Virus record (IMG/VR): IMGVR_UViG_3300009604_000062
Coordinates: 1-27,469 of that record
DNA length: 27,469 nucleotides
From: a virus
Direction: 5' to 3' (one strand)
In this document: positions 20,383 to 22,058 of the stretch, in pieces
Layout: every line of letters begins with the position of its first letter
How positions within the stretch are numbered: position 1 is the stretch's first letter
Notes under the pieces: generated by a model
Told to the model about the DNA's origin: nothing
Databases searched by the model: none
What the model saw: only the letters and a program-made list of their open reading frames with translations
Program-made: the position numbers and the translations under genes

Positions 20383-20480
20383 ATTTAATCTCTCTGTTAA
20401 ATTACTTTCATTAATATTATATGGCAGGCGGTGAAAGTTTCCGCTTTTCAGGAGCTACCCTAGCCACATATAAAGATAAT
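20383..20480 (-). other. 98-base spacer between RlpA-like gene and HNH gene
   Basis: No ORF of note and no convincing hairpin with a U tract. The minus strand carries the A/T-rich context upstream of the HNH start (AGAGAGATTAAATATGAAGG, with AGAGAG as a weak ribosome site). It may be the leader brought in with the homing endonuclease. Confidence 0.4.
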
Positions 20481-21681: not shown

Positions 21682-21707
21682 TGATTTGGGTGGAACAACT
21701 GAAGCGA
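21682..21707. repeat. Left arm of 26-bp inverted repeat closing the permuted tRNA element
   Basis: Complementary to 22033-22058 except at 21699 and 21703, both of which form wobble pairs in minus-strand RNA. The arms are about 325 bases apart, and nothing else in the window has an inverted repeat of this length. Confidence 0.85.
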
Positions 21708-21824
21708 CTAGCCAAGGATTGGTTATTAGGAGTTATATTAGTCGTTAATCTGTTGTTCTGCTATTCGGTCATTTGGATGTATTTATATCAATGGTTCTTC
21801 TATTCGGAGTTCCTTTGTTTTTTA

Positions 21825-21915
21825 GTAAGTGCTCTAACCACTGAGCTAATCCCCCATAGAGCCTACTTAAATAAGCTCTAAGGGAGATGAGGGATTTGAA
21901 CCCCCGACCAATTAC
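21825..21915 (-). tRNA. Circularly permuted tRNA (3' half before 5' half), anticodon not readable
   Basis: Minus strand, in order: stem strand GTAAT (21915-21911), variable loop TGGTC, T stem GGGGG with loop TTCAAAT and CCCTC, acceptor 3' strand ATCTCCC (21888-21882). A 26-base linker with hairpin TAGAGC/GCTCTA follows. Then come acceptor 5' strand GGGGGAT (21855-21849), TA, D stem GCTC, loop AGTGGTTA, GAGC, A and CTTAC (21829-21825). The acceptor strands pair 7 of 7, counting one G-U. Tertiary positions U8, A14, G15-C48, G18, G19, U55, C56 and A58 are all present. The anticodon stem CTTAC/GTAAT has one C-U mismatch and neither side offers U33 in the normal register. CCA is not encoded. The halves are certain; maturation to a working tRNA is not. 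Confidence 0.75.
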
Positions 21916-22032
21916 GCTATTATTTACATATCCAAAATGTATGTTGAATTAACTGTCAACGTCAGCTTGCAACGAGAAACCGATTTCTCTACGGTTTAAA
22001 GGTACCGAGCAACCTTGCCCTACACGCACCAC

Positions 22033-22058
22033 TCGCCTCAATTGTTCCACCCAAATCA
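22033..22058. repeat. Right arm of 26-bp inverted repeat closing the permuted tRNA element
   Basis: Pairs with 21682-21707. On the minus strand it forms the 5' end of the element, a few bases after the stop of the DIP1984-like gene and next to a TATGAT that could be a -10 box without a good -35. Confidence 0.8.

What the first reader, a model, noticed from the sequence alone, without database searches (positions are those of the whole stretch)
21825..21915. A circularly permuted tRNA in a phage genome
On the minus strand a complete tRNA 3' half (variable loop, T arm, acceptor strand ATCTCCC) precedes a complete 5' half (GGGGGAT, D arm GCTC/GAGC with GTGG loop). The acceptor strands pair over all seven positions and the tertiary bases U8, A14, G15-C48, G18-U55 and G19-C56 are all kept, so the match is not accidental. 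Permuted tRNA genes are known in some red algae, green picoalgae and archaea, where a protein endonuclease joins the ends. I know no equivalent enzyme in bacteria, so this RNA would need self-splicing, a phage factor, or use as a two-piece or tRNA-like molecule.
Basis: partly seen in the sequence, partly recalled or inferred. Interest (0 to 1): 0.88.

Follow-up and report, generated by a model that had tools for sequence, protein, structure and literature searches.

The report
Permuted tRNA-like module in phage RNA
A phage carries a real, back-to-front tRNA-like RNA module sitting on a long folded stem; it is of the kind that caps bacterial and phage Y RNAs, and many related copies in other phages keep a complete anticodon arm, so they may be genuine permuted tRNA genes, although this copy does not show one.

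Summary
On the minus strand (21912-21828) a tRNA 3' half precedes a tRNA 5' half, with a 7/7 acceptor helix and the core tRNA contacts. A covariance model built from 46 other loci, window excluded, finds it at 55 bits, E = 2e-13. A structural scan finds none in 150 shuffles. It lies in a non-coding gap inside a ~377-nt structure closed by a 26-bp helix.

Scans gave 107 non-redundant phage candidates. Their halves match each other, many anticodon arms are canonical (26 against 0.9 expected), and UUACUUC-flanked ones sit with Ro60/TROVE genes (p = 5e-7).

This copy lacks what would make it a decoding tRNA: no join at the class split gives a 7-nt U33 loop, no CCA is encoded, and neither this genome nor its 40-kb relative shows Ro60 or RtcB. 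Most likely it is a tRNA-mimic module on a long Y-RNA-like rod. A spliced permuted pre-tRNA is not excluded. The wider set with intact anticodon arms is the bigger surprise.

The parts
22033..22058 (-). 5' arm of the 26-bp closing helix (TGATTTGGGTGGAACAATTGAGGCGA)
   Evidence: Inverted repeat I1, 92% complementary, all pairs if G-U counted; score 63 vs shuffle maximum 25
21682..21707 (-). 3' arm of the closing helix
   Evidence: As above
21921..21939 (-). 5' strand of a predicted inner helix (CATTTTGGAT...), next to the tRNA 3' half
   Evidence: Inverted repeat I5; appears in the constrained fold; no covariation data
21770..21787 (-). 3' strand of the predicted inner helix (...ATCCAAATG)
   Evidence: As above
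21911..21915 (-). Anticodon-stem 3' strand GTAAT (39-43)
   Evidence: Pairs 4 of 5 with 21825-21829
21889..21910 (-). Variable loop TGGTC and T arm GGGGG-TTCAAAT-CCCTC
   Evidence: Read directly; model R1
21882..21888 (-). Acceptor 3' strand ATCTCCC (66-72); no CCA follows
21856..21881 (-). Linker joining the two acceptor strands; hairpin TAGAGC...GCTCTA
21849..21855 (-). Acceptor 5' strand GGGGGAT (1-7), pairs 7 of 7
21831..21848 (-). T8, A9 and D arm GCTC-AGTGGTTA-GAGC
21825..21829 (-). Anticodon-stem 5' strand CTTAC (27-31); followed by TAAAA, no U33
21946..21953 (-). GTTAATTC, 7 of 8 like the GTTACTTC motif of Ro60-linked relatives (possible, weak)
   Evidence: Sequence comparison with loci; the stricter motif test is negative for the window

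Best explanation
The phage makes, probably as part of its minus-strand operon transcript, a ~377-nt structured RNA from the gap between two genes. A 26-bp helix closes it, and within it sits a permuted tRNA-like module: T arm, acceptor with a hairpin cap, D arm. [quoted passage not shown] Unspliced, it presents a tRNA elbow and acceptor stem to tRNA-binding factors (PNPase, TruB and DusA type enzymes, RNase P or a tRNA nuclease), while the long stem is the handle for a protein or for RNase III release. Shown: the module, the closing helix and the relation of the module to a large class of permuted modules. Inferred: transcription, stability, that it stays unspliced, and any partner.
For: Model from other loci hits at 55 bits, E = 2e-13, among permuted modules (48-68 bits) and above nearly all ordinary tandem tRNA pairs. 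YrlA is the best Rfam match by bit score over exactly this module. Many of the other permuted modules also match YrlA over the module. Long closing helices of 17-27 bp occur around several Ro60-linked permuted modules. Fold z-score -7. No canonical anticodon loop in this copy. Known roles of the YrlA tRNA-like domain and basal stem: PMC8394870, PMC7790460.
Against: Rfam YrlA score 23 bits, far below the curated 69. No Ro60/TROVE gene in the window or in the 40-kb relative. No UUACUUC or ACAGCAA motif by strict match. About 115-120 nt of extra sequence on each side. No divergent homologue, so the flanks are untested by covariation. No expression data.
Confidence: 0.5

Rival explanations
1. It is a true permuted pre-tRNA: the flanks are removed and the 5' half is joined to the 3' half, the linker hairpin is cut off by RNase P and 3' processing, and a working tRNA results. 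In this copy the split lies in the anticodon loop, or at 26|27 giving a UGG (Pro) anticodon with a long variable region.
For: In 26 of 107 non-redundant phage candidates the 3' half carries an anticodon hairpin with U33 and a purine at 37, and 27-28 of the 5' half pair with it (0.9 expected for the hairpin signature, 0.1 for all together). Many different anticodons; CCA encoded at 74-76 in 23 of 107 (1.7 expected). A hairpin TACAT-TTTGGAT-ATGTA lies just upstream in the window.
Against: Window: no U33 loop at the class split, C27-U43 mismatch, no CCA; the alternative hairpin is expected 0.36 times by chance and leaves a 19-nt variable region. No known splicing enzyme, and RtcB absent from window and relative.
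Confidence: 0.25
2. It is a decayed permuted tRNA or Y RNA that has lost its anticodon part and partners and is only passively kept as a structured spacer or RNase III site in the operon.
For: Anticodon stem imperfect, no loop, no Ro60. A distant relative (L377) has only a small closed hairpin at the syntenic site, without the module.
Against: Acceptor 7/7 and all core tertiary bases intact in the window and in the near-identical contig.
Confidence: 0.15
3. It is a two-piece RNA, like permuted alpha-proteobacterial tmRNA: the linker is cut out and two RNAs stay paired, with a large middle domain in place of an anticodon arm.
For: Gene order equals that of permuted tmRNA (own knowledge); weak tmRNA match over the 3' half; ~115-nt flanks could hold a functional domain.
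Against: Canonical D arm, which tmRNA lacks (established knowledge); no permuted-tmRNA family match and no tag; no G3-U70 identity pair.
Confidence: 0.07
4. It is the remnant of two neighbouring ordinary tRNA genes (3' half of one, 5' half of the next).
For: Such adjacency is common in phage tRNA arrays.
Against: 7/7 acceptor pairing between the halves, a linker hairpin in phase with the acceptor, a closing helix centred on the module, no tRNA array here (one tRNA-Gln 4.3 kb away).
Confidence: 0.03

Closest known systems
YrlA (Y RNA-like A, RF02553), Ro60/Rsr-bound Y RNA of bacteria and phages
   Same: Order T arm - acceptor - loop - acceptor - D arm, U8/A9, GG in the D loop, basal stem closing the RNA
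   Different: Score far below the Rfam cut-off, ~377 nt instead of ~90-150, no recognisable Rsr-binding stem, no Ro60 gene in the phage
Circularly permuted tRNA genes of red and green algae and archaea
   Same: 3' half before 5' half, joined by a short linker between the acceptor strands
   Different: Those carry a bulge-helix-bulge cut by a tRNA endonuclease (PMC3978253); here no such motif or canonical anticodon loop was found
Phage permuted tRNA modules with complete anticodon arms (found here, e.g. L188, L193, L204, L228; Gordonia phage VanLee)
   Same: Module, linker, several with long closing helices
   Different: They have canonical anticodon arms with the split mostly at 28|29 and UUACUUC or ACAGCAA flanks; the window has neither
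Permuted (two-piece) tmRNA
   Same: Gene order and linker between acceptor strands
   Different: tmRNA has no D stem and carries a tag; the window has a full D arm and no family match

Membership tests
YrlA Y RNA (RF02553) | Permuted tRNA-like module (T arm, acceptor, D arm) | tested here: met
   alignment matches model positions 26-82
YrlA Y RNA (RF02553) | Score at or above the curated cut-off over the whole model | tested here: not met
   23.2 bits against 69; note that Ro60-linked phage copies also stay below it (e.g. 42.1 L063, 38.6 L048, 34.9 L062)
YrlA Y RNA (RF02553) | Rsr/Ro60-binding basal stem with its conserved internal loop | tested here: not met
   Model positions 1-25 and 83-114 do not align; no UUACUUC-like motif by strict match; GTTAATTC at 21953-21946 is a weak candidate
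YrlA Y RNA (RF02553) | Ro60/TROVE gene nearby | tested here: not met
   None in the window or in the 40-kb relative; a host Rsr cannot be excluded
YrlA Y RNA (RF02553) | Binding to Rsr and PNPase | not testable with these tools
   Needs pull-down
Circularly permuted tRNA gene | 3' half upstream of 5' half with paired acceptor strands | tested here: met
Circularly permuted tRNA gene | Joined product has a complete anticodon arm with 7-nt loop and U33 | tested here: not met
   no join at the class split; the only alternative needs a 19-nt variable region and is expected 0.36 times by chance
Circularly permuted tRNA gene | Bulge-helix-bulge or other splice signal at the ends of the halves | tested here: inconclusive
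   No bulge-helix-bulge seen by inspection of the folds; no intron family match
Circularly permuted tRNA gene | Mature joined tRNA and tRNA circle in vivo | not testable with these tools
   Needs RNA from infected cells
Phage permuted tRNA class described here | 27-43 and 28-42 pairs between the halves | tested here: not met
   C27-U43 mismatch, U28-A42 pairs
Phage permuted tRNA class described here | Closing helix around the module | tested here: met
   26 bp, but 118-122 nt from the module
Permuted tmRNA | tmRNA acceptor piece and tag reading frame | tested here: not met
   No tmRNA by ARAGORN, no family match above cut-off

The most novel reading that the evidence does not exclude
Phages, and bacteria with Y RNAs, carry true circularly permuted tRNA genes. 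Many YrlA-type RNAs are precursors whose Y-RNA flanks are removed and whose halves are joined inside the anticodon arm with the help of Ro60 or another factor, and the window holds a Ro60-free, large-flank variant of this system.
Probability: 0.22. Interest if true: 0.92.

Novelty: new variant of a known kind. Interest (0 to 1): 0.6.

Why it matters
It corrects the search image: a permuted tRNA layout in bacteria and phages is not unique but is the layout of YrlA RNAs. The comparison also shows that many phage and bacterial YrlA-type modules keep a complete, canonical anticodon arm with many different anticodons, which a pure tRNA mimic would not need. That makes a sharp question testable in cultured phages: are these RNAs joined into working tRNAs, and is that what Ro60 is for?

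Tried and rejected
Permuted group I or II intron: no Rfam match, and no internal guide pairing to CUUACU seen by inspection (a permuted intron could escape a nested model). Known self-cleaving ribozymes: no match. tmRNA, permuted tmRNA: only a weak partial match. Tandem tRNA remnant: rejected by acceptor pairing. Mobile element with terminal inverted repeats: the repeats have no other copy in the window and no flush target duplication was seen; not pursued further. DNA-level homologues in annotated phages: only ordinary tRNA halves match. A targeted IMG/VR scan for the window-like 5' half returned only the near-identical contig. Phage relatives by portal protein or neighbouring gene: no module. 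ARAGORN on in silico joined copies: not discriminating. Large-flank relatives (L164, L210, L199, L251 and others) share no telling k-mers with the window flanks.

Full report
What is in the sequence. The window is a 27.5-kb virus contig. Its only close relative, G001 (40,082 bp, 99.9% identical), holds the same element. The element lies on the minus strand in the non-coding gap between a 98-aa gene (ends 22065) and a 102-aa gene (starts 21662). Reading 5' to 3': 26-nt arm (22058-22033), ~115 nt, GTAAT, TGGTC, T arm, acceptor 3' strand ATCTCCC, a 26-nt linker that folds as a hairpin, acceptor 5' strand GGGGGAT, TA, D arm, A, CTTAC, ~115 nt, complementary 26-nt arm (21707-21682).

Is it more than chance? 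A script that looks for T arm, acceptor and D arm in the permuted order gives 0 hits in 150 dinucleotide-preserving shuffles. A covariance model of permuted modules built from 46 loci without the window finds only this place in the window, 55 bits, E about 2e-13 (E-values from this tool are rough). The closing helix scores 63 against a shuffle maximum of 25. The region folds with z = -7.

What it resembles. Rfam in permissive mode aligns YrlA over exactly the module, E = 0.033, 23 bits, far below the curated cut-off. YrlA is a bacterial Y RNA, 90-150 nt, with a basal stem for the Ro60 protein Rsr and a tRNA-like domain resembling the D, T and acceptor arms, modified by DusA and TruB and linked to PNPase (PMC8394870; PMC7790460). 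The alignment of YrlA itself shows the same permuted order.

Relatives. Two features not used in the selection test whether they are real. First, positions 27 and 28 of the 5' half pair with 43 and 42 of the 3' half in 75 of 107 (19 expected, maximum 30 in 300 shuffles). Second, the 3' half carries a 3-bp anticodon hairpin with a 7-nt loop, U33 and purine 37 in 26 (0.9 expected, maximum 5). CCA follows the acceptor directly in 23 (1.7 expected). The joined arms are canonical, with anticodons such as GTT, TCT, CCT, GGT, TGG and TTC. Most of these splits lie at 28|29. Bacterial genomes show the same: 24 of 83 candidates with a full arm (one or two of these loci are phage records read in the same batch). 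In the alignment used for the model 99.9% of paired cells are standard, but selection for pairing makes that figure biased.

Link to Ro60. Of 48 contigs compared, a UUACUUC-like motif upstream of the 3' half occurs in 15 of 18 with a TROVE gene and in 3 of 30 without (p = 5e-7). A second group has ACAGCAA instead and mostly no TROVE gene. The 30 without TROVE include the window. RtcB is rare (3 of 50 contigs). Named, cultured examples: Gordonia phage VanLee, where the permuted gene beside a Ro-like gene is annotated as an ordinary tRNA-Arg(tct), and Caulobacter phage CcrPW. I found no paper describing permuted tRNA genes in phages in the held library; the original YrlA papers are not held, so whether their authors noted anticodon arms is unchecked.

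Where the window stands. It shares the module and a long closing helix with the class. It lacks the class signature: C27-U43 does not pair, 29-31/39-41 do not form a hairpin, and joining at any point with a normal variable loop gives no U33. One alternative hairpin (anticodon TGG) exists but needs a 19-nt variable region and is expected 0.36 times per shuffled sequence. Flank motifs are absent by strict match, though GTTAATTC at 21953-21946 is 7 of 8. No CCA, no Ro60, no RtcB. The flanks are much longer than in typical YrlA and match no other locus.

Mechanism. I think most likely an unspliced tRNA-mimic module on a long rod, working like YrlA. Shown: module, helix, class relation. Inferred: expression, partner, function. 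A spliced permuted pre-tRNA is the main rival and, for the relatives with complete anticodon arms, may well be the better explanation.

Limits. One sequence effectively (two near-identical contigs), so no covariation for the window's own flanks; no expression data; collection scans capped; contigs may be incomplete, so absence of Ro60 is only for the sequence held.

Noticed in passing
L188 ~3884, L193, L197, L204, L228, L229, L170, L114, L169 and others: Phage permuted tRNA modules with complete canonical anticodon arms, split mostly at 28|29, often several per contig. This may be a widespread class of permuted tRNA genes.
   Followed up: partly
L188 ~4026, L250 ~2761, L170 ~11418: A further arrangement in the same phages: the 5' half carries the whole anticodon arm and the split seems to fall in the variable region, again next to GTTACTTC.
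   Followed up: no
L258:2979-3050 (NC_073474.1:65454-65525): Gordonia phage VanLee tRNA-Arg(tct) looks like a misannotated permuted module directly upstream of the Ro-like gene.
   Followed up: partly
L158, L194, L177, L152, L111: Several permuted modules have an anticodon stem but A instead of U at position 33.
   Followed up: no
L164, L210, L199, L251, L178, L237, L254: Permuted modules with long structured flanks of an unknown type; L164 and L210 share stretches such as CATAGGG..AGACT and TGCCCCTCA.
   Followed up: no
L259-L375 (e.g. Streptomyces L274, L283): Bacterial YrlA-type RNAs also often contain a complete anticodon arm (24 of 83 candidates).
   Followed up: partly
window 20404-20470 (-): int-alpA RNA (RF02996, 51.6 bits) between an HNH endonuclease and a lytic transglycosylase-like gene; no integrase or alpA gene was recognised beside it.
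   Followed up: no
L377:3884-3971: In a distant relative the site upstream of the homologue of the 102-aa gene holds a small closed hairpin element without the tRNA module; it shares GGGCAAGGTT with the window element.
   Followed up: partly
L140:18860-19031: A T-arm-like sequence (ATGGGTTCAAATCCCAC) after a long hairpin (GTAATATCTGTAGA...TCTACAGATATTAC) near the terminase and a homing-endonuclease-like gene; not a tRNA by ARAGORN, may be chance.
   Followed up: no
L120:5852-6267: GOLLD RNA close to permuted tRNA-like modules and tRNAs in one contig.
   Followed up: no
window 21748-21768 and 21787-21807: Direct repeat CCGAATAGnAGAACnA, two copies 39 nt apart in the 3' flank of the element.
   Followed up: no
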